Of a DNA stretch of 12,202 bases, positions 411-12,202 are shown piece after piece. The notes under the pieces are model-generated. The model saw only the letters and a program-made list of their open reading frames with translations. It was not told where the DNA came from and ran no database searches. The position numbers and the translations under genes are program-made. Every line of letters starts with the position of its first letter. Position 1 is the stretch's first letter. Source of the stretch: Paramuribaculum sp. (lineage in GTDB: Bacteria > Bacteroidota > Bacteroidia > Bacteroidales > Muribaculaceae); NCBI GenBank assembly GCA_029058455.1, contig JAIDXU010000080.1:1-12202 (forward strand), in the 5' to 3' direction.

Positions 411-1613
411 ATGGCTTCAATAAAAGTAAAATTCCGTTACTCAAGTCTTCCTGACAGCGAGGGCACTATCTATTATCAGATTATTCATGACAGAAAAACC
501 CGTCAGCTTTTTACCGATTATCATCTGCTCGCTTCTGAATGGAGCGAACGACGCTCTACCGTTGCTACCGGTCATTCAGGCAGTCGTGTTGCTCAGATGA
601 TTTCGATCAAGGAGCATATAAGGCTCGATGTCGAGAGGCTGACCAAAATAGTTAGACAGTTCGACAGCCGATGTCTTGAATATAGCGCCGACGATATAGT
701 CGAGGAATATAAACGTTTTGTCAGTGAATATTCGCTGTTTAATTACATGAAAAGTGTGATTAGCAGTCTTAAGCAAAATCATAAGATACGCACTTCCGAG
801 ACCTATCAGGCCGCCCTCAACAGTTTCAGGAAATTCAGGGGTGGTAAGGATATATTGCTCGATTGTATTACATCGGAGGTAATGGAATCGTTTGAGGCCT
901 GGCACAGGAAGAAGGGCAACACTCAGAATACTTTTTCGTTTTATGCAAGGATTCTGCGCGCCACCTACAACCGGGCTGTGGAGCAGAACATAATCGAAAA
1001 CCGATTTCCCTTTCGTCATGTCTATACCGGAGTTGACAAGACGGTTAAGAGGGCTCTACCGCTCAACATCATAAAGCGGATCAAGTCGCTTAATCTTAAA
1101 TACTCTCCGTCGCTCGACTATGCCCGCGACATGTTTATGATGAGCTTCATGCTCAGGGGCATGAGTTTTATAGATATGGCCTATTTGCGCAAATCAGACC
1201 TGGCGCACGGATATGTAAGTTACAGGCGTCGCAAAACGGGGCAGAAGCTCATAATCGAATGGACTGAGGATATGCAGAGGGTTGTTGACAAATATCCTGA
1301 AAACAGTTCCGACTATCTTCTGCCGATTATAAAGCACCGGGGCATCAATGAGCGGTGTGTCTATCGCACCGCGGGCTATAGGATAAACTGTAATCTCAAG
1401 AAGCTGGGCGGCATGGTGGGAGTGGAGATGCCCCTCACGCTCTATGTGGCGCGTCACAGCTGGGCGAGTGCCGCCAGGGCCAAGGGGATACCGGTGAGTG
1501 TCATCAGCGAAGGAATGGGGCACGACTCCGAATCAACCACGCAGATATATCTCGCGTCGCTCGACACTTCGATGGTTGATCGGGCCAATATGCTGATACT
1601 CAGCAGTCTTTGA
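411..1613 (+). CDS. Tyrosine recombinase / site-specific integrase, Bacteroidota type
   Basis: This is a complete 400-residue tyrosine recombinase that would cut and rejoin DNA at specific sites through a 3'-phosphotyrosine link. The N-terminus (about 5-60) resembles the Arm-type DNA-binding domain of Bacteroidota integrases. Residues about 108-200 form the SAM-like core-binding domain, and 215-395 the catalytic domain. Visible catalytic residues are Arg249 (FMLRGMSFIDM), Lys275 (RRRKTGQ), Arg348 (YVARHSW), His371 (GMGHDS) and nucleophile Tyr380 (TTQIYL). The His of the classical H-x-x-R box is Tyr345, a pattern I recall as common in Bacteroidota members. All key residues are present, so it is probably active. 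No excisionase, relaxase or phage gene is nearby, which fits a lone recombinase such as those that invert promoters or a leftover of an integrated element. I found no convincing long inverted repeats flanking it. It ends 191 bases before fucI in the same direction. The ATG at 411 is the only sensible start. Confidence 0.93.
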   Translation: MASIKVKFRYSSLPDSEGTIYYQIIHDRKTRQLFTDYHLLASEWSERRSTVATGHSGSRVAQMISIKEHIRLDVERLTKIVRQFDSRCLEYSADDIVEEYKRFVSEYSLFNYMKSVISSLKQNHKIRTSETYQAALNSFRKFRGGKDILLDCITSEVMESFEAWHRKKGNTQNTFSFYARILRATYNRAVEQNIIENRFPFRHVYTGVDKTVKRALPLNIIKRIKSLNLKYSPSLDYARDMFMMSFMLRGMSFIDMAYLRKSDLAHGYVSYRRRKTGQKLIIEWTEDMQRVVDKYPENSSDYLLPIIKHRGINERCVYRTAGYRINCNLKKLGGMVGVEMPLTLYVARHSWASAARAKGIPVSVISEGMGHDSESTTQIYLASLDTSMVDRANMLILSSL

Positions 1614-1646
1614 ACGGAAGTGTCAGGCTGATGTGTTTACCGCAGA

Positions 1647-1687
1647 TATTTTCACTTGAAAATTAATGAAAAAGGCCGGTGAAAATA
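1647..1687. promoter_or_regulatory. Candidate operator: palindrome plus TGAAAA half-site cluster
   Basis: A 16-base palindrome ATTTTCACTTGAAAAT (1648-1663) has 7-base perfect arms around CT. TGAAAA recurs in direct orientation at 1667-1672 and 1680-1685. Separately, TATTTTCAC (1647-1655) is the exact inverse of GTGAAAATA (1679-1687), nine bases per arm. The cluster ends 34 bases before the -7 box, so it lies just upstream of the core promoter. That position would suit an activator or a transcription factor acting on fucI. The role is inferred; AT-rich repeats of this size can arise by chance. Confidence 0.45.
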
Positions 1688-1721
1688 GTGATGGCAGGTG
1701 GATAAAGAGAGGTTTTTTTCG

Positions 1722-1729
1722 TAACTTTG
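1722..1729 (+). promoter_or_regulatory. Bacteroidota -7 promoter box for the fuc operon
   Basis: TAACTTTG matches the TAnnTTTG -7 consensus of the Bacteroidota housekeeping sigma factor exactly. The expected start of transcription is near 1736, giving a 5' leader of about 70 bases before the fucI ATG at 1805. At the usual 19-base spacing the -33 position (about 1699-1702) reads TGGA, not TTTG. The promoter is therefore incomplete and may need an activator, as would suit an inducible sugar operon. Confidence 0.7.
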
Positions 1730-1804
1730 CCGTTAGTCATCTATAATGCTTTATCCTGTGATAAGCTAATAAATAATCATACCAAAATAAACTAAACATA
1801 TAGC

Positions 1805-3580
1805 ATGAAAAATTATCCTAAAATCGGTATTCGCCCCACTATCGACGGTCGTCAGGGTGGAGTGAGAGAGAGCCTTGAGGAAAAGACAATGGAACTTGCC
1901 AAGGCTGTGGCCAACCTTATCTCTACCAATCTGCGCTATCCCGACGGAACTCCCGTTGAGTGTGTGATAGCCGATTCAACAATTGGCCGTGTAGCCGAAG
2001 CCGCCGCTTGTGCCGAAAAATTTGAGAGAGAAGGTGTAGGCGCCACCATTAGCGTGACCTCATGCTGGTGTTACGGCTCTGAAACTATGGATATGCATCC
2101 CTATTGGCCCAAAGCCGTTTGGGGATTTAACGGCACCGAACGCCCCGGAGCCGTTTATCTTGCAGCAGTGTTGGCCGGCCACGCCCAGAAGGGTCTGCCC
2201 GCTTTCGGCATTTACGGCCATGATGTGCAGGATCTCAACGACAATACTATTCCCGACGATGTTGCTGAGAAGCTGCTCCGCTTTGCCCGTGCTTCGATCG
2301 CCGTTGCCCTTATGCGCGGCAAGAGCTATCTTTCGATCGGCTCGATGTGTATGGGTATCGCCGGTTCGATTGTCGAGCCTTCGTTCTTCCAGGAATATCT
2401 CGGCATGAGAAACGAGAGTGTCGACGAGACCGAAATTCTGCGCCGCATGGATGAGGGTATCTATGACAAAGAGGAGTATGCCAAAGCTATGGCATGGACC
2501 GAAAAATATTGCAAGCCCAACGAGGGTGAGGATATAAAGAACACAGTCAAGGCCAAAACCCGCGAACAGAAAGATGCCGACTGGGAATTTATCGTTAAGA
2601 TGACCCTTATCGTAAGAGACCTCATGATCGGTAATCCCCGTCTGCTCGAAGCCGGCTTCAAGGAGGAATCTCTCGGCCATAACGCTATCGCCGGCGGTTT
2701 CCAGGGTCAGCGTCAGTGGACCGACTGGAAGCCCAACGGTGACTATACCGAGGCTCTCATGAATACCTCTTTCGACTGGAACGGTATTCGCGAGGCATTT
2801 GTGCTTGCCACTGAAAACGACGCCTGCAACGGTGTGGCCATGTTGTTCGGTCATCTGCTCACCGGTATCGGTCAGATGTTCTCCGACGTGCGTACCTACT
2901 GGAGCCCCGAGGCTGTGAAACGCGTCACCGGCAAGGAACTCACAGGCCGCGCCGCCGGTGGTATTATCCACCTCATCAATTCAGGTGCCACCACTCTCGA
3001 CGCAACCGGTCAGAGTTTCAACGCAGCCGGCGAACCCTGCATGAAACCCTCATGGGAAATGACCGAAAAAGATGTCGAGGCATGTCTCGCAGCCACTACA
3101 TGGTATCCTGCCGACCGTGATTATTTCCGTGGCGGCGGCTTCTCGTCAAACTTCCTTACCAAAGGCGGAATGCCTGTCACCATGATGCGTCTCAACCTCG
3201 TGAAAGGTCTTGGCCCGGTTCTTCAGATAGCCGAGGGTTGGACTGTTGACATCGATCCTGAAATCAACGCCATTCTCGACAAACGCACCGATCCCACCTG
3301 GCCTACCACATGGTTTGTGCCCCGTCTCTGTCCCGACAGAGATGCCTTTAAGGATGTTTATTCGGTGATGAACAACTGGGGTGCCAACCACGGTGCTATT
3401 TCCTATGGCCATATCGGTAAGGATGTGATCACTCTCGCTTCGATTCTGCGTATACCCGTTTGTATGCACAATATTCCCGACACCGAAATCTTCAGACCTT
3501 CTGCATGGAATGCATTTGGAATGGATAAGGAGGGCGCAGACTATCGTGCATGTAAGAATTACGGACCTCTTTACAAGTAA
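1805..3580 (+). CDS. fucI: L-fucose isomerase
   Basis: FucI interconverts L-fucose and L-fuculose in the cytoplasm using Mn2+, the first step of the phosphorylative fucose pathway. The 591 residues equal the length of E. coli FucI and align with it nearly without gaps from PKIGIRP at the start to [12 protein letters not shown] at the end. Recognisable blocks are CWCYGSET (87-94), [15 protein letters not shown] (107-121), YGHDVQD (137-143), FQGQRQWTD (299-307), [12 protein letters not shown] (335-346) and [10 protein letters not shown] (361-370). The metal ligands known from E. coli (Glu337, Asp361, His528) correspond to Glu337, Asp361 and His529 here. It is the first gene of the operon; fucA begins 3 bases after its stop. 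The ATG at 1805 gives an N-terminus of normal length. A long open frame on the opposite strand (2060-2971) is a codon-bias shadow. L-arabinose or D-arabinose side activity is known in the family, but the context says fucose. Confidence 0.97.
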
Positions 3581-3583
3581 GTC

Positions 3584-4225
3584 ATGGCAACTTCAGCACA
3601 GATCGATCAGTTTATCCGCGCCGCCCATAAAGTCGGAGCCGCCGGGCTTACGATATGCAGCAGCGGTAACCTTTCGTGGCGTCTGCCCAACGGCGAGGTG
3701 CTTATTTCAGGCACCGGCTCATGGCTGCCCGAAATCACCGCCGACAGAGTGTCGGTGGTCGAGCTTGCCGAGGGAAAGATTCTCAACGGTGTCAAGCCGT
3801 CGATGGAGAGCACTTTCCACCTCAGCGTGATGAGAGAGCGCCCCGACGTTAATGTGGTGCTCCATTTCCAGAGCCCCTATGCCACCGCGCTTGCTTGCAG
3901 GAAAGAGCGTTTCACCAACCTCAATTTCACAGCCGAAATGGCTCTGCATGTGGGTGAGGAGATTCCCCAGATTCCCTATTTCCGCCCCGGCTCGCCTCAA
4001 CTTGCCGAGCATGTGATCGAGGCCATGCGCGAACACAACAGTGTGTTGCTGCTCAAACATGGTCAGGTGGTGTGTGGCGCCGATTTCGATCAGGCCTTTG
4101 AAAGAGCCATGTTCTTTGAAATGGGCTGTCGCATAGCGTTGCTCAACGGCTCGAATGTCGACCCCCTGACAAGAGCTGAGATCGATGACCTTGAATCCTA
4201 TTTCTTAGGCAAGGAAGGCAAATGA
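3584..4225 (+). CDS. fucA: L-fuculose-1-phosphate aldolase (class II aldolase/adducin family)
   Basis: FucA cleaves L-fuculose-1-phosphate to DHAP and L-lactaldehyde. The 213 residues compare with 215 in E. coli. The phosphate-binding SSGNLSWR (26-33) and SGTGSW (42-47), the catalytic Glu75 (PSMESTFH), His94 (VVLHFQ) and His159 (LKHGQ) are in place. By eye-alignment to E. coli FucA, Glu73, His92 and His155 are kept. The zinc ligand His94 is Gln96 here, giving H-F-Q instead of H-N-H, and Tyr113 is Phe115; the tail Tyr209 matches Tyr206. I believe the HFQSP version is shared by Bacteroides FucA proteins but cannot check it. The gene lies 3 bases after fucI and overlaps fucK by 4 bases (ATGA), so translation is probably coupled. 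Function rests strongly on the operon; a related class II aldolase specificity is the only alternative. Confidence 0.92.
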   Translation: MATSAQIDQFIRAAHKVGAAGLTICSSGNLSWRLPNGEVLISGTGSWLPEITADRVSVVELAEGKILNGVKPSMESTFHLSVMRERPDVNVVLHFQSPYATALACRKERFTNLNFTAEMALHVGEEIPQIPYFRPGSPQLAEHVIEAMREHNSVLLLKHGQVVCGADFDQAFERAMFFEMGCRIALLNGSNVDPLTRAEIDDLESYFLGKEGK

Positions 4226-5616
4226 AAGAAGCTTATATAGCAGTTGATTTCGGAGGAGGAAGCGGCAGGGTAATAGCCGCTTCCCTCTCCCGAAATTCAT
4301 TGACTCTTGACGAACTCCATCGTTTCGAAAACCGTCAGATAAATATGGGTGGCCATATTTACTGGGATTTCCTGTCGCTGTTTGAGGAGATGAAAACCGG
4401 TTTGAGAAAGGGTGTTGAGAAAGGCTATAAACTTCTGAGCGTGGGCATTGACACATGGGGAGTGGATTTCGGCCTTATAGACCGTCACGGCAATCTGCTG
4501 GGTAATCCGGTTTGCTACCGCGATCCGTCGCTTCAGGGTGGCCTGCAACGCTATTTCGAAACCGAAGACCCCGACGCTCATTATGCTCAAAGCGGTATTC
4601 AGCAGATGGATATAAATAGCCTGTATCGTCTGGTGGATATGCGTAAAAGTGCGCCCGAGCTTCTTGAGGTTGCGGCTCATCTGCTTTTCATGCCCGACCT
4701 CTTCAGTTATTTCCTCACCGGCGTAGCCTGCAATGAATATACCATCGCTTCGACTTCCGAGCTGATTGACGTTAAAACACGCTCATGGAACCGTGAGCTG
4801 ATAGCCCGAGTAGGGTTGCCTGAACATCTGTTTGGCCGTATAGTCATGCCGGGTGAAGTGCGCGGCAAGCTTACCGACGATATAAAACAGGAAATCGGTA
4901 TAGACTATGACGTTAATGTTATAGCTGTGGGATCGCACGACACCGCCAGCGCCGTTCATTCGGTTTGCGGAACCTATGAGAGCGACGGTACCGTTTTTCT
5001 CAGCTCCGGCACATGGTCGCTGCTTGGAGCCGTGATAAGCAATCCCGTGCTTACTCCGCAGGCACGTCTCGCCGGGTTTACCAACGAGGGTGCCACAGGC
5101 GGCAAAATAAGATTTCTTCAGAATATTACCGGTCTGTGGATTCTGCAACGCCTCATGGCCTTGTGGAAAGCCGCCGGAATGAGAACCGATTATGATTATC
5201 TGCTCTCGGAGGCTGAAAAGTCAGATTATTCGGAAGTGATCGATGTTGACGATCAGGTATTCACCACCGCGCGAGAGATGGAGAAGACGATCAGAAACTA
5301 CTGCCGCTCGCACAATCTTCCCGAACCTGAGACTCAGGGCGATATAGTGAAATGTGTGCTTCTGTCGCTTGCCACACGCTATAAGAGGGGTGTTGAAGAT
5401 CTCGGCTCAATGCTCGGCCGAAAGGTGGAGCGTATTCAGGTGATAGGCGGAGGCAGCCGCAACAAGCTGCTCAACCGACTCACCTCCCAACTTACAGGAG
5501 TGCCTGTCGAGGCGGGAGCTGTCGAGGCAACCGCTATCGGCAATGTTATGCTTCAGGCCCAGGCCGCCGGACAGTGTGTAACCATGGCCGAAATCAACGA
5601 GATAGTCTGCATATAG
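4222..5616 (+). CDS. fucK: L-fuculokinase / rhamnulokinase-like FGGY kinase
   Basis: This 464-residue FGGY carbohydrate kinase phosphorylates L-fuculose with ATP at the C1 hydroxyl, between the isomerase and aldolase steps. The N-terminal ATPase-fold domain opens with YIAVDFGGGSGRV (5-17), the phosphate-1 loop. GIDTWGVDFGLID (75-87) is the substrate-side motif typical of rhamnulokinases. AVGSHDTASAV (235-245) carries the likely catalytic base Asp240, and FLSSGTWSLLG (259-269) and VIGGGSRNKLLNRL (407-420) bind nucleotide. The C-terminal block AGAVEATAIGNVMLQA (431-446) closes the FGGY fold. By sequence it sits nearer to rhamnulokinase than to E. coli FucK, and annotation pipelines may name it rhaB. 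Its place between fucA and fucP makes fuculose the expected substrate. It overlaps fucA by 4 bases and is followed after 15 bases by fucP. Confidence 0.9.
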   Translation: MKEAYIAVDFGGGSGRVIAASLSRNSLTLDELHRFENRQINMGGHIYWDFLSLFEEMKTGLRKGVEKGYKLLSVGIDTWGVDFGLIDRHGNLLGNPVCYRDPSLQGGLQRYFETEDPDAHYAQSGIQQMDINSLYRLVDMRKSAPELLEVAAHLLFMPDLFSYFLTGVACNEYTIASTSELIDVKTRSWNRELIARVGLPEHLFGRIVMPGEVRGKLTDDIKQEIGIDYDVNVIAVGSHDTASAVHSVCGTYESDGTVFLSSGTWSLLGAVISNPVLTPQARLAGFTNEGATGGKIRFLQNITGLWILQRLMALWKAAGMRTDYDYLLSEAEKSDYSEVIDVDDQVFTTAREMEKTIRNYCRSHNLPEPETQGDIVKCVLLSLATRYKRGVEDLGSMLGRKVERIQVIGGGSRNKLLNRLTSQLTGVPVEAGAVEATAIGNVMLQAQAAGQCVTMAEINEIVCI

Positions 5617-5631
5617 AAAAACTTTATTGTA

Positions 5632-6948
5632 ATGGAAAAAACCTTAAATCGAAAGCCCCCGTTGGTAGAGAAAAAATATCTTCTGCCATTTATATTGTTG
5701 ACTTCTCTGTTTGTGTTGTGGGGATTTGCCAATGATATTACCAATCCTATGGTAGCCGCCTTTAAGGATATTATGGAAATATCCACGGCTCAGGCCTCGC
5801 TTGTGCAGTTCGCGTTCTATGGAGGATATGCCACTATGGCTGTTCCGGCAGCTCTTTTCATCAGGAAATTCAGCTATAAGAGCGGCATTTTGCTCGGACT
5901 CGGACTTTATGCCATCGGTGCGTTTCTCTTTATTCCCTCGGCGTCGCTTCAGAGTTTCACATTCTTCTGTCTGTCGCTCTATGTGCTGACTTTCGGACTG
6001 GCGTTTCTCGAAACAACTGCCAATCCCTATGTGCTGTCGCTTGGAGATAAGCAATCATCTACACGCCGACTCAATATGGCGCAGGCTTTCAACCCCGTGG
6101 GCTCGCTCTCGGGCATGGCCGTAGCCTCGTTTGTGATTCTGCCCAACCTGCTGTCTGACGTTCGCGATGCCGATGGCAATCTGGTATTTAATACTCTCAG
6201 CGTTGCCGAAAAAGCCGCTATCCGCACCCACGATCTCGCCGTGATACGCGACCCATACGTTGCGATCGGCCTTGTGGTGCTGGTGATGTTTATAATCATC
6301 GCATTGGCCAAAATGCCCAAACCTGTCAAGGATAATGACGACAGCTGTGGCGTGAAAACAACCCTCAGCCATCTGTGGCATAACCATGCTTATCGCTATG
6401 GTGTTATCTCCCAGATGTTTTATGTGGGTGCCCAGATCATGGTGTGGACATTTATCATTCAGTATGCCGGCAACCTCGGTATCAATAAGGCCACCGCACA
6501 GATCTATAATATTGTCGCCATGCTGCTTGCTCTCAGCTTCAGGTTTATCGGCACCTATCTGATGAAGTATATCCGTCCCGCCCGACTGCTGCAGATATTC
6601 GGAATCGGAGCCGTGATCTGCACCGCTCTGACAATCCTTATCGAGGGCATGATAGGTCTCTATTTCCTCGTTGCCATAAGTGCGTTTATGTCTATCATGT
6701 TCCCGAGTATCTATGGCATAGCTTTGGAAAAAGTCGACAAGACAGATACATCACTTGGCGCGGCATTTCTGGTAATGGCTATCGTTGGCGGTGCGCTTAT
6801 GCCTCCGCTTCAGGGCATGATTATCGACTGTGACAGAATCTTTGATTTCCCCGCTGTCAACATCTCGTTTGTGCTTCCGCTTATCTGTTTTATCGTAGTG
6901 GCTATCTACGGCACCTACTCCCAGAAGCGCAATAGCGTTGAAATCTGA
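5632..6948 (+). CDS. fucP: L-fucose:H+ symporter (MFS, FucP/GluP family)
   Basis: FucP brings L-fucose through the inner membrane with a proton. The 438 residues match E. coli FucP in length, with about 12 hydrophobic segments and a polar central loop near 225-245. Motifs are LWGFANDITNPM (29-40), FYGGYATMAVPAALFIRKFSYKSG (62-85), FLETTANPYVLSLG (125-138) and LNMAQAFNPVGS (147-158). Without gaps and with an offset of 8, Glu127 matches the essential Glu135 of E. coli, whereas Asp46 falls on Asn38; an Asp is present three residues earlier (Asp35). That arrangement is, as far as I recall, usual for Bacteroides FucP. It is the last gene of the operon, 15 bases after fucK, with a strong terminator 20 bases downstream. 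Bacteroides thetaiotaomicron has an extra gene (fucX) between kinase and permease; it is absent here. Confidence 0.93.
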   Translation: MEKTLNRKPPLVEKKYLLPFILLTSLFVLWGFANDITNPMVAAFKDIMEISTAQASLVQFAFYGGYATMAVPAALFIRKFSYKSGILLGLGLYAIGAFLFIPSASLQSFTFFCLSLYVLTFGLAFLETTANPYVLSLGDKQSSTRRLNMAQAFNPVGSLSGMAVASFVILPNLLSDVRDADGNLVFNTLSVAEKAAIRTHDLAVIRDPYVAIGLVVLVMFIIIALAKMPKPVKDNDDSCGVKTTLSHLWHNHAYRYGVISQMFYVGAQIMVWTFIIQYAGNLGINKATAQIYNIVAMLLALSFRFIGTYLMKYIRPARLLQIFGIGAVICTALTILIEGMIGLYFLVAISAFMSIMFPSIYGIALEKVDKTDTSLGAAFLVMAIVGGALMPPLQGMIIDCDRIFDFPAVNISFVLPLICFIVVAIYGTYSQKRNSVEI

Positions 6949-11202: not shown

Positions 11203-11233
11203 TTTGATATTCAAAAAAATAGTTATAACTTTG
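11203..11233 (+). promoter_or_regulatory. Complete Bacteroidota promoter for a noncoding RNA
   Basis: TTTG (11203-11206) and TAACTTTG (11226-11233) are separated by exactly 19 bases, matching both elements of the Bacteroidota housekeeping promoter at its preferred spacing. Transcription is expected to start near 11240. It is the only promoter in the window with both boxes intact, which suggests strong constitutive expression of the downstream RNA. Confidence 0.85.
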
Positions 11234-11239
11234 CTGCCG

Positions 11240-11538
11240 AATATCGCTCGCCGAAGTCCGATATGGGTTAAGCGGGCGGGATACATTTTATTAACATAGG
11301 AGCGTTTATCGACGCTTTTCTTGACTGATGGGAATCTCGCAAATTCTTCAGTTTGAGTCAAGAAATGGCAACGGTAGATGCCTTTCGGGTATGGTTTTTT
11401 ATGTCGTCTCAGCGATGAGGCGGCATAATATATCATACAGCGTGAGGCTTCGGCGTTGCTCTTTCTACTCAAACGGGCAATGCGAGAGCCTCCATCAGTT
11501 GAAAGAGCAACCGATACAGGCTTTCACGCTCTTTTTTT
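11240..11538 (+). ncRNA. Structured noncoding RNA of about 300 nt, family not recognised
   Basis: No credible gene lies in this stretch, yet it has a complete promoter in front, several strong hairpins and an intrinsic terminator. Stems seen: ATATCG/CGATAT (11241-11246 with 11259-11264); AGCGT/ACGCT (11301-11305 with 11312-11316); ten perfect pairs TTTCTTGACT/AGTCAAGAAA (11317-11326 with 11356-11365) enclosing GAAT/ATTC; and eleven pairs including two G-U (11400-11410 with 11417-11427, loop AGCGAT). The last is a long two-part stem of AGCGTGA/TCACGCT (11439-11445 with 11524-11530) and GTTGCTCTTTC/GAAAGAGCAAC (11455-11465 with 11501-11511), ending in seven T's (11532-11538). The interrupted long stem recalls 6S-like RNAs, and Rfam lists Bacteroidales-only motifs such as Bacteroidales-1, but I cannot match the sequence to one. 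Diagnostic cores of tmRNA, SRP RNA and RNase P RNA are absent. The 5' end is inferred from the promoter. Confidence 0.8.
11439..11538 (+). terminator. Terminal long hairpin and U-tract of the noncoding RNA
   Basis: The outer stem AGCGTGA/TCACGCT closes at 11530 and is followed by C and seven T's (11532-11538), as expected for intrinsic termination. The stem continues after an internal loop into eleven perfect pairs. The hairpin is much longer than a plain terminator, so it is probably also a functional domain of the RNA. Confidence 0.75.
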
Positions 11539-11585
11539 ATAAATAAGCAGCCAACGAGGGGAGTCCGGAGGCGTAAGTTTTAACT

Positions 11586-11837
11586 ATGTACAAATACCGA
11601 GTCGCATTCATGGTAAATGATAAGCAAATGAATGCATGGTTTGTATCTCCTACTGAATTTACAGTGGAAACCAAAAATCGGTTTCGCGAGATGGCCAAAT
11701 TGGCTGTTCAAGAATATCTTTGCGAAGCTAGAAGTGTGCCATCCGCTGGAACAGCTGAGGCTTTAGCAATTTGGCCCGAAATCTTGCCCTCAAAAGGAGT
11801 AATTCAACCTCTTGATGCATTCGAATTAACTGACTAG
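11586..11837 (+). CDS. Small hypothetical protein, 83 residues
   Basis: I do not recognise this product. It begins MYKYRVAFMVNDKQMNAWF, with alternating hydrophobic residues that look like a beta-hairpin (YRVAFMVN, then MNAWFVS). An amphipathic helix (about 31-46, NRFREMAKLAVQEYLC) follows, then a Pro/Ala-rich C-terminal part ending PLDAFELTD. There is no signal peptide, membrane segment or metal motif. The frame is supported by a proper ATG and by the downstream gene beginning 4 bases after its TAG, which suggests an operon. No own promoter is seen: TAAGTTTT at 11574-11581 is too close to the ATG. Expression may come by read-through of the noncoding RNA terminator 47 bases upstream. Its composition is more AT-rich than the operons to the left, suggesting accessory or transferred DNA. 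Confidence 0.6.
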   Translation: MYKYRVAFMVNDKQMNAWFVSPTEFTVETKNRFREMAKLAVQEYLCEARSVPSAGTAEALAIWPEILPSKGVIQPLDAFELTD

Positions 11838-11841
11838 AACT

Positions 11842-12202
11842 ATGAAACTAATCATTCACGAATTTTGGATGGTCATGGTAATGCTGGGGCTGTCCATTTC
11901 TGCATATGCCTACGATTTTGAAGTCGACGGGGTATTTTATACTGTGACAGACTTAGAGAAGTTTGAGATTGAGGTCGCAAACCCCTTTCCTAATGAACCA
12001 TATACCAAAACGGAAATTGTAATTCCATCAGAGATAGTATACAACGGTAGAACATTTGTTCCTGTTCGCATTGGTGAAAGAGCTTTTTATTACACTAAAA
12101 ATCTCAAATCGGTGTCTTTGCCATCTTCTATCAAGTCTATAGGAAAAGGAGCATTCCAAGATTCTGGATTATTTACAATCAATTTAAATGATGGCTTAAA
12201 AA
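11842..12202 (+). CDS. Secreted BspA-like leucine-rich repeat (LRR_5) protein, N-terminal part (cut by window edge)
   Basis: From the ATG at 11842 the frame stays open for 120 codons to the window edge. A signal peptide is visible: MKLIIHEFWMVMVMLGLSIS, then AYAYDFEVDG, with likely cleavage after Ala22 or near it. The following DFEVDGVFYTV is the usual opening of Bacteroidales BspA-like proteins. IVIPSEIVYNGRTFVPVRIG (about 61-80) and then ERAFYYTKNLKSVSLPSSIK with SIGKGAFQDSGL show the LRR_5 pattern, in which each ~23-residue repeat has I-G-x-x-A-F and an L-x-x-V-x-L-P strand. Such proteins are exported and often mediate adhesion or binding; no specific ligand can be given. It starts 4 bases after the small gene and was probably co-transcribed. 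Two 60-base lines that I counted here are about 32-35% GC against about 52% in fucI, so it may be laterally acquired. The C-terminus is not in the window. Confidence 0.85.
   Translation, partial: MKLIIHEFWMVMVMLGLSISAYAYDFEVDGVFYTVTDLEKFEIEVANPFPNEPYTKTEIVIPSEIVYNGRTFVPVRIGERAFYYTKNLKSVSLPSSIKSIGKGAFQDSGLFTINLNDGLK

What the first reader, a model, noticed from the sequence alone, without database searches (positions are those of the whole stretch)
11203..11538. Unassigned ~300 nt structured RNA with a perfect promoter and terminator
A complete TTTG-N19-TAACTTTG promoter leads into about 300 bases with no credible gene. Five stems of 5-11 perfect or near-perfect pairs follow, the last a long interrupted hairpin closing onto seven T's. 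This is what an independently transcribed regulatory RNA looks like. I cannot place it in tmRNA, SRP or RNase P RNA. A 6S-like RNA or a Bacteroidales-specific Rfam motif is possible, as is an undescribed family.
Basis: partly seen in the sequence, partly recalled or inferred. Interest (0 to 1): 0.75.

Follow-up and report, generated by a model that had tools for sequence, protein, structure and literature searches.

The report
Knotted RNA leader in gut Bacteroidales
Upstream of many unrelated surface, peptide and defence-like genes, bacteria of the order Bacteroidales carry copies of an unusual, knot-like 300-base RNA that ends in a transcription stop signal and probably works as an on/off switch for the gene behind it; it matches no entry of the standard RNA family library.

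Summary
In detail: promoter TTTG-N19-TAACTTTG (11203-11233), about 300 non-coding, strongly structured bases, and a hairpin ending in T7 (11532-11538). No Rfam 15 family matches there. It is not a lone curiosity: 155 of 198 genomes of the same family and 36 of 295 of the order match, the window's own included; one genome has 11 clear copies. Of 395 genomes sampled across the phylum only the window's own and one other of the order match. On 86 full-length copies a 90-pair model forms 90.2% standard pairs; 65 pairs show changes on both sides (851 cells; shuffled 288; slid at most 230). The RNA is real. The 'independent sRNA' reading is less likely: 110 of 136 copies have a same-strand ORF starting within 150 nt after the T-run, 2 of 110 spacers hold a promoter box, and a covarying helix joins the terminator strand to the spacer. 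I read it as a 5' leader: a riboswitch-like attenuator with chained exclusive helices and an extended loop-loop contact. The signal is unknown. Downstream genes are diverse: BspA-type LRR proteins, CXXX-repeat peptides, defence-like proteins.

The parts
11203..11233 (+). promoter TTTG-N19-TAACTTTG
   Evidence: sequence; TAnnTTTG found at the element start in 79 of 80 copies examined (the search model starts at this box, so partly by construction)
11241..11280 (+). 5' domain: helix H0 11241-46/11259-64 with loop 11247-58; alternative pairing 11247-52/11275-80
   Evidence: H0: 78.7% of cells paired, all 6 pairs with double changes; inner part of the alternative helix 69.5% paired
11302..11310 (+). 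strand 1 (GCGUUUAUC); pairs with strand 2 (11373-81), or locally with 11313-16
   Evidence: 1:2 helix 94.5% paired, 45 double-change cells against 11.9 shuffled; local helix 95.3% paired, 4 double-change cells
11318..11364 (+). hairpin P3 (outer stem 11318-23/11359-64, inner 11332-34/11344-46); its loop segments pair with the terminator loop: R1 11324-31, R2 11335-41, R3 11351-58
   Evidence: P3 outer 93.8%, inner 91.1% of cells paired
11368..11382 (+). strand 2 (GCAACGGUAGAUGCC); pairs with strand 1 or strand 3
11389..11438 (+). helix P5 with variable apical hairpin
   Evidence: 87.9% paired; apical part differs between copies
11440..11465 (+). strand 3, the switch strand (GCGUGAGGCUUCGGCGUUGCUCUUUC); pairs with strand 2, strand 4, or (11446-54) with the 5' domain loop 11250-58 (PK2)
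   Evidence: 3:4 with its inner stem 97.4% paired, 52 double-change cells against 10.3 shuffled; 2:3 91.5%, 25 against 5.9; PK2 86.8%, 40 against 19.2
11467..11499 (+). terminator loop carrying R3' 11467-74, R2' 11481-87, R1' 11492-99 and inner stem 11476-78/11488-90
   Evidence: R1 94.1%, R2 99.2% paired, all their pairs with double changes; R3 82.9 and 86.6% in its two halves; covariation scores up to 240 against sd 5.2
11501..11538 (+). strand 4 plus T-run: 3' arm of the intrinsic-terminator-like hairpin
   Evidence: 3' hairpin dG median -37.9 kcal/mol, z below -2 in 82 of 86 copies; at least 6 T in 8 nt in 133 of 139 copies, one random stretch per copy 8 of 139
11550..11572 (+). spacer element with strand 5 (11560-65) that pairs with 11519-24 (PD); small hairpin 11550-52/11570-72
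   Evidence: PD 79.3% paired, 64 double-change cells against 23.2 shuffled; small hairpin poorly aligned, 40.7% paired
11586..11837 (+). downstream ORF, 83 aa, no Pfam, PADLOC or NCBIfam family at E 1e-4; first gene of the presumed transcript
   Evidence: 88 relatives, called 'hypothetical protein' where a source gives a product name
11842..12201 (+). second downstream ORF, BspA-type leucine-rich repeat protein, cut by the contig end
   Evidence: PF13306, E 2.3e-9; contig is 12202 bases

Best explanation
The element is the 5' leader of the downstream gene(s), 11586 onward, and belongs to an apparently undescribed family of riboswitch-like transcription attenuators of Bacteroidales. RNA polymerase starts near 11238 and makes strands that can pair in a chain: 1:2 (11302-10/11373-81), 2:3 (11368-82/11446-59), 3:4 (11440-65/11501-29, the terminator hairpin before the T-run) and 4:5 (11519-24/11560-65, after read-through). 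When 1:2 is held, strand 3 is free to pair with strand 4 and transcription stops at the T-run. When 2:3 forms, the terminator stem is broken and the downstream gene is made. The P3 hairpin docks onto the terminator loop through R1-R2-R3 (8+7+8 bp in the window copy), and the 5' domain loop can take the middle of strand 3 (PK2); both probably bias the choice. SHOWN by comparison: the helices, that several of them exclude each other, the usual position before a same-strand gene, the T-run. INFERRED: transcription of the full leader, termination, switching, the direction of the switch, and that a signal (metabolite, ion, protein or temperature) sets it.
For: Structure: 90-pair model, 90.2% of 7381 cells paired, 851 double-change cells (shuffled 288.1, slid at most 230). 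Helices that exclude each other, each with more double-change cells than every one of 500 shuffles and than the slid versions: 1:2, 2:3, 3:4, 4:5, PK2. Terminator. Leader position: of 136 copies with at least 300 nt downstream, 110 have a same-strand ATG ORF of at least 40 aa starting under 150 nt after the T-run, 74 of them at 45-70 nt; in the 82 copies with both flanks held, 67 have an ORF of at least 80 aa there against 15 in the mirrored upstream position. Promoter box TAnnTTTG in the spacer in 2 of 110. Many copies per genome before unrelated genes, as for a shared control element. The four full own-genome copies are about 68-72% identical to each other (local alignments) and each has a closer copy (72-81%) in another genome: old paralogues, not fresh insertions.
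Against: No transcript data. At all nine lengths tested from 11466 to 11590 the MFE of the window transcript keeps strand 3 paired upstream (13-20 positions) and never in the terminator, and a rod fold that includes 2:3 also has a basal helix (11300-05/11526-31, 97.5% paired) ending at the T-run, so the rod itself might terminate. R1-R3 fit both folds and do not discriminate. Covariation of PK2 is modest: 303 of 500 shuffles reach its number of pairs with double changes and two slid versions exceed it; for 2:3 one slid version comes near (19 cells against 25). Swapping strand 2 between random copies still gives a 1:2 helix of 9 bp or more in 44 of 86, against 66 of 86 for true partners. 19 of 136 copies have no same-strand ATG ORF of at least 40 aa within 220 nt. 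No shared function of the downstream genes points to a ligand. Phylogeny was not modelled, and the structure was read from alignments of the copies it was tested on.
Confidence: 0.6

Rival explanations
1. Stand-alone trans-acting RNA: the ~300-nt transcript ends at the T-run and acts on other RNAs or a protein; downstream genes are only neighbours or get minor read-through.
For: Complete promoter and strong terminator; loops of different copies are alike in part; 19 of 136 copies lack a near same-strand ORF.
Against: Spacing to a same-strand ORF, spacer box in 2 of 110, covarying helix across the T-run, changing gene partners.
Confidence: 0.18
2. Leader that controls translation or mRNA stability rather than termination: the knot and PD (strand 5, 20-26 nt before the ATG) gate ribosome access or shield the 5' end; the T-run is an incidental or leaky stop.
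For: PD covaries and lies next to the start codon; most helices are compatible with one knotted fold.
Against: T-rich end in 133 of 139 copies directly after a strong hairpin.
Confidence: 0.15
3. Self-cleaving or otherwise catalytic RNA in the 5' UTR.
For: Size, multiple pseudoknots and loop-loop contacts are of the order seen in large ribozymes (general knowledge, no call).
Against: No cleavage site or catalytic core recognised; no Rfam match, ribozyme families included.
Confidence: 0.04
4. DNA-level repeat (mobile hairpin, recombination site) whose palindromic look is not about RNA.
For: Several copies per genome; some contigs of the window's own genome end inside or near copies; two of three viral-collection contigs with the pattern carry a full element.
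Against: G-U pairs among the paired cells, strand-specific promoter and T-run, usually on the sense strand of the next gene, old divergence of copies, no blastn match in the phage and plasmid collections at E 1e-3.
Confidence: 0.03

Closest known systems
Riboswitches and other transcription attenuators with intrinsic terminators (general class)
   Same: 5' leader position, terminator before the ORF, chain of mutually exclusive helices
   Different: No match to any Rfam riboswitch; no ligand or common pathway; extra helix across the T-run; P3 loop paired along 23 bp with the terminator loop
Large ornate bacterial RNAs OLE, ROOL, GOLLD (PMC12286853: abstract and outline seen)
   Same: Multi-helix architecture with kissing loops
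   Different: The abstract describes homo-oligomers; here the contacts fit within one molecule and oligomerisation was not tested; this RNA is shorter (their lengths recalled, no call) and sits as a leader in several copies per genome
Bacteroidales-1 RNA (RF01693)
   Same: Same order of bacteria, non-coding
   Different: No covariance-model match at the site; the genome carries a separate Bacteroidales-1 locus, 118 bits
CopA-CopT type extended kissing complex (recalled, no call)
   Same: Two hairpins whose loops are complementary over long stretches, giving a four-way junction
   Different: Here the two hairpins lie in one transcript and one of them is the terminator
Riboswitch candidate with a terminator loop that could pair with the preceding hairpin, in PMC11109978 (one passage seen)
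   Same: The authors suggest that such a pseudoknot could prevent the terminator
   Different: A different motif linked to one-carbon/folate metabolism; the terms Bacteroid, Prevotella and Porphyromonas do not occur in that main text

Membership tests
Transcription attenuator (generic) | Leader lies 5' of a same-strand gene without an intervening promoter | tested here: met
   (67 of 82 against 15 of 82 mirrored; spacer box 2 of 110); 19 of 136 copies are exceptions
Transcription attenuator (generic) | Intrinsic terminator: stable hairpin followed by a U-run | tested here: met
Transcription attenuator (generic) | Mutually exclusive antiterminator helix supported by comparison | tested here: met
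   2:3 helix 91.5% paired, 25 double-change cells against 5.9 shuffled, best slid version 19; support modest
Transcription attenuator (generic) | Termination that responds to a signal in cells or in vitro | not testable with these tools
   no expression data
Riboswitch | Direct binding of a small ligand by the leader | not testable with these tools
   none
Riboswitch | Match to a described class in Rfam 15 | tested here: not met
6S / Bacteroidales-1 / 6S-Flavo RNA | Covariance-model match | tested here: not met
   no match at 11203-11572 up to E 1; Bacteroidales-1 found elsewhere in the genome
tmRNA, SRP RNA, RNase P RNA | Covariance-model match or ARAGORN tmRNA | tested here: not met
Stand-alone sRNA | Own promoter and terminator with no dependent downstream gene | tested here: inconclusive
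   promoter and terminator present, but the downstream gene appears dependent

The most novel reading that the evidence does not exclude
An undescribed, order-wide class of RNA switch: one knotted leader, in up to eleven clear, diverged copies per genome, puts surface adhesins, modified peptides and defence-type genes of Bacteroidales under one unknown signal, and reads it by docking a sensor hairpin onto the loop of its own terminator (two four-way junctions closed by a kissing helix), followed by a second checkpoint (strand 5) beyond the terminator.
Probability: 0.35. Interest if true: 0.88.

Novelty: new variant of a known kind. Interest (0 to 1): 0.72.

Why it matters
If right, Bacteroidales have a shared RNA-based switch over a broad, variable set of surface and conflict genes for which Rfam 15 gave no matching model. 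It gives a concrete, testable regulon: find the signal that moves the 2:3 / 3:4 balance. The loop-on-terminator architecture would also be an unusual way to couple sensing to termination.

Tried and rejected
Rfam at E up to 1 on the window and E up to 5 on 19 of the 272 loci then held: the matches listed do not overlap the element. Bacteroidales-1 as identity: rejected, separate locus. Pure rod (the MFE and RNAalifold picture): kept as an alternative state, not the whole story, because the local hairpins P3, PT/PB and the inner stems are supported too. Coding element: rejected. Recently mobile element: not favoured, though two viral-collection contigs carry a copy. A single functional theme of downstream genes: not found; 36 Pfam, 75 PADLOC and 31 NCBIfam families over 102 proteins, 25 of each shown, most of those shown with one or two members. 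PADLOC hits at helicase and kinase domains may be generic. Literature: five searches, of which I saw listings only (1 of 1, 15 of 46, 20 of 60, 12 of 28 and 12 of 14 papers), showed no title about this RNA. Of six papers opened I saw: passages of PMC8040213 (12 of 15 places), PMC10994844, PMC11109978 and PMC2864571; no hit for my terms in PMC8632094; abstract and outline of PMC12286853. PMC8040213 reports 3161 human-microbiome candidates whose supplement I could not open, so a fragment of this RNA may be listed there (for example its HMP2_1881, 108 bp, Bacteroidetes, near radical SAM domains). No R-scape was available; I used an APC-corrected G-test and the shuffles and slides of the counting tool.

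Rows dropped: 6 partial loci before the first oriented alignment and 4 more (L012, L017, L026, L027, with inserts) for A1 (25 of 29), hits under 180 model positions and redundant copies, leaving 143 from 151 loci (149 with a hit); 4 of those 143 before the 139-copy alignment. A2 holds 86 of 139 (full length, spacer held, element at most 345 nt). The 102 downstream proteins are those of at least 70 aa starting within 150 nt, out of 136 copies.

Full report
WHAT IS THERE. The promoter is TTTG 11203-11206, 19 bases, TAACTTTG 11226-11233; the T-run is 11532-11538. The plus strand folds far better than shuffles (z -8.7; minus strand -5.6). Rfam 15 gives nothing at the site even at E up to 1, nor over the element in 19 relatives up to E 5.

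HOW COMMON. The window's genome (2.0 Mb, 379 contigs, 79.75% complete) has 8 match rows with a sequence-only model: four full copies including this one, two that match only to model position 177 near a contig end, one weak partial, and one weak antisense row over this copy. In the same family 155 of 198 genomes match by DNA at E up to 0.01, the window's own included. In the order 36 of 295 match at E up to 0.001, in 17 families, two of them only by weak partial rows (strict filters, so probably a lower bound). In a sample of 395 genomes across the phylum 2 match: the window's own and one other of the order (strict filters). In 25 genomes searched more fully, 24 with an earlier hit and one (G057) without, all match, with 1 to 13 rows each at E up to 0.01, some partial; G008 has 13 rows, 11 of them at E below 1e-14. 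All 118 give an HMM hit to the element. By my reading of the names, 75 of the 80 listed titles are Bacteroidales, among them Prevotella denticola, Hallella mizrahii, Paraprevotella xylaniphila, Phocaeicola oris, Xylanibacter rodentium and Bacteroides sp. GM023; three carry Clostridia-type names, probably binning errors (inference), and two name no group. Three contig lengths in that list equal those of genomes of the window's family and are titled Muribaculaceae or Amulumruptor, so the window is probably Muribaculaceae (inference).

STRUCTURE. RNAalifold on 25 copies predicted 75 pairs, 42 with double changes. On 139 copies (Neff 123) the strongest covarying pairs, with scores up to 240 against a background sd of 5.2, lie between the loop of hairpin P3 and the loop of the 3' hairpin: R1 11324-31/11492-99, R2 11335-41/11481-87 and R3, covarying at 11353-56/11469-72 and extended by complementarity to 11351-58/11467-74. 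Pairs of the local hairpins covary as well: P3, the terminator stems PT and PB, and both inner stems. P3, PB, R1 and R3 can form together as a four-way junction, with R2 as a kissing helix at the far end (inference from the pairing). The 5' domain loop 11250-58 is complementary to 11446-54 between PT and PB (PK2), and 11519-24 pairs with 11560-65 beyond the T-run (PD). This set, 90 pairs, is paired in 90.2% of 7381 cells on 86 copies, with 851 double-change cells, 288.1 expected from shuffles and at most 230 for slid partners. A rod model of 45 pairs scores equally well in its own terms (92.4%), in part because it shares R1-R3.

THE SWITCH. Several strands have more than one supported partner. 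Strand 1 (11302-10) pairs with strand 2 (11373-81): 94.5%, 45 double-change cells against 11.9 shuffled. Strand 2 pairs with strand 3: 91.5%, 25 against 5.9. Strand 3 pairs with strand 4, the terminator: 97.4% with its inner stem, 52 against 10.3. Strand 4 pairs with strand 5 past the T-run: 79.3%, 64 against 23.2. 1:2 and 2:3 cannot coexist, nor can 2:3 and 3:4. The longest 1:2 helix reaches 9 bp in 66 of 86 copies; with strand 2 taken from a random other copy it still does in 44 of 86, as expected where the strands are conserved. The 3' hairpin alone has a median energy of -37.9 kcal/mol and z below -2 in 82 of 86 copies. Against the model, the MFE of window transcripts at all nine lengths tested from 11466 to 11590 keeps strand 3 paired upstream, so at equilibrium the antiterminated fold wins and termination would need kinetics or a bound signal; and the rod's base also abuts the T-run. 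PK2 is the weakest of the helices named: 303 of 500 shuffles reach its count of pairs with double changes.

WHY A LEADER. Of 136 copies with at least 300 nt downstream, 110 have a same-strand ATG ORF of at least 40 aa starting less than 150 nt after the T-run, 74 of them at 45-70 nt; 104 have one of at least 80 aa within 220 nt; 19 have none of 40 aa. In the 82 copies with both flanks held, 67 have an 80-aa ORF downstream against 15 in the mirrored upstream position. TAnnTTTG occurs in 2 of 110 spacers but at 79 of 80 element starts (the latter partly by construction). In the window the first gene is an 83-aa protein of unknown family (88 relatives) followed by a BspA-type LRR protein cut by the contig end.

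WHAT IT CONTROLS (if a leader). Among 102 first downstream proteins, 11 match BspA-type LRR_5; families with one or two hits include CsgG, SNF2-related and PLD-like domains, Pkinase, AbiGi, FRG, DUF2971, vWA and an outer-membrane beta-barrel. NCBIfam finds six matches to the CXXX-repeat radical-SAM target family. PADLOC gives defence-type matches such as HKD+Snf2, MADS6 kinase and PD-T4-6, some of which may be generic domains. No pathway suggests a ligand.

JUDGEMENT. That it is a real structured RNA family: about 0.97. That it acts in cis as a leader: about 0.85. That it works by switchable termination as described: 0.6. Novelty is judged against Rfam 15 and the literature listings only.

Noticed in passing
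own genome C222 (copy 3157-3337 of 3374) and C101 (18778-18930 of 18967); L003, L040: Two copies of the element match only up to model position 177, the variable apical hairpin, about 37 nt before a contig end, as if assembly or sequencing stopped at the hairpin.
   Followed up: no
L031, L035, L075, L113, region after the T-run: Copies before the same kind of 225-aa protein (KEQRKER...KASKKELNEKASKAARKEAK) have a different spacer sequence (GGACUGUGA...UCACAGUCC or similar) in place of the GGGGAGUCC motif.
   Followed up: partly
own genome C282:3348-3537 (L275): A separate Bacteroidales-1 RNA (RF01693), 118 bits.
   Followed up: no
L062 1041-1076 (minus strand): Sub-threshold match to DUF805b RNA (28.4 bits, cut-off 35.6).
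   Followed up: no
window 411-6948: Phage-integrase-family protein next to an L-fucose isomerase, class II aldolase, FGGY kinase and MFS transporter set.
   Followed up: no
L270, L271 (viral contigs): Two of three viral-collection contigs with the pattern carry a full element; whether these are phages or bacterial flanks was not examined.
   Followed up: no
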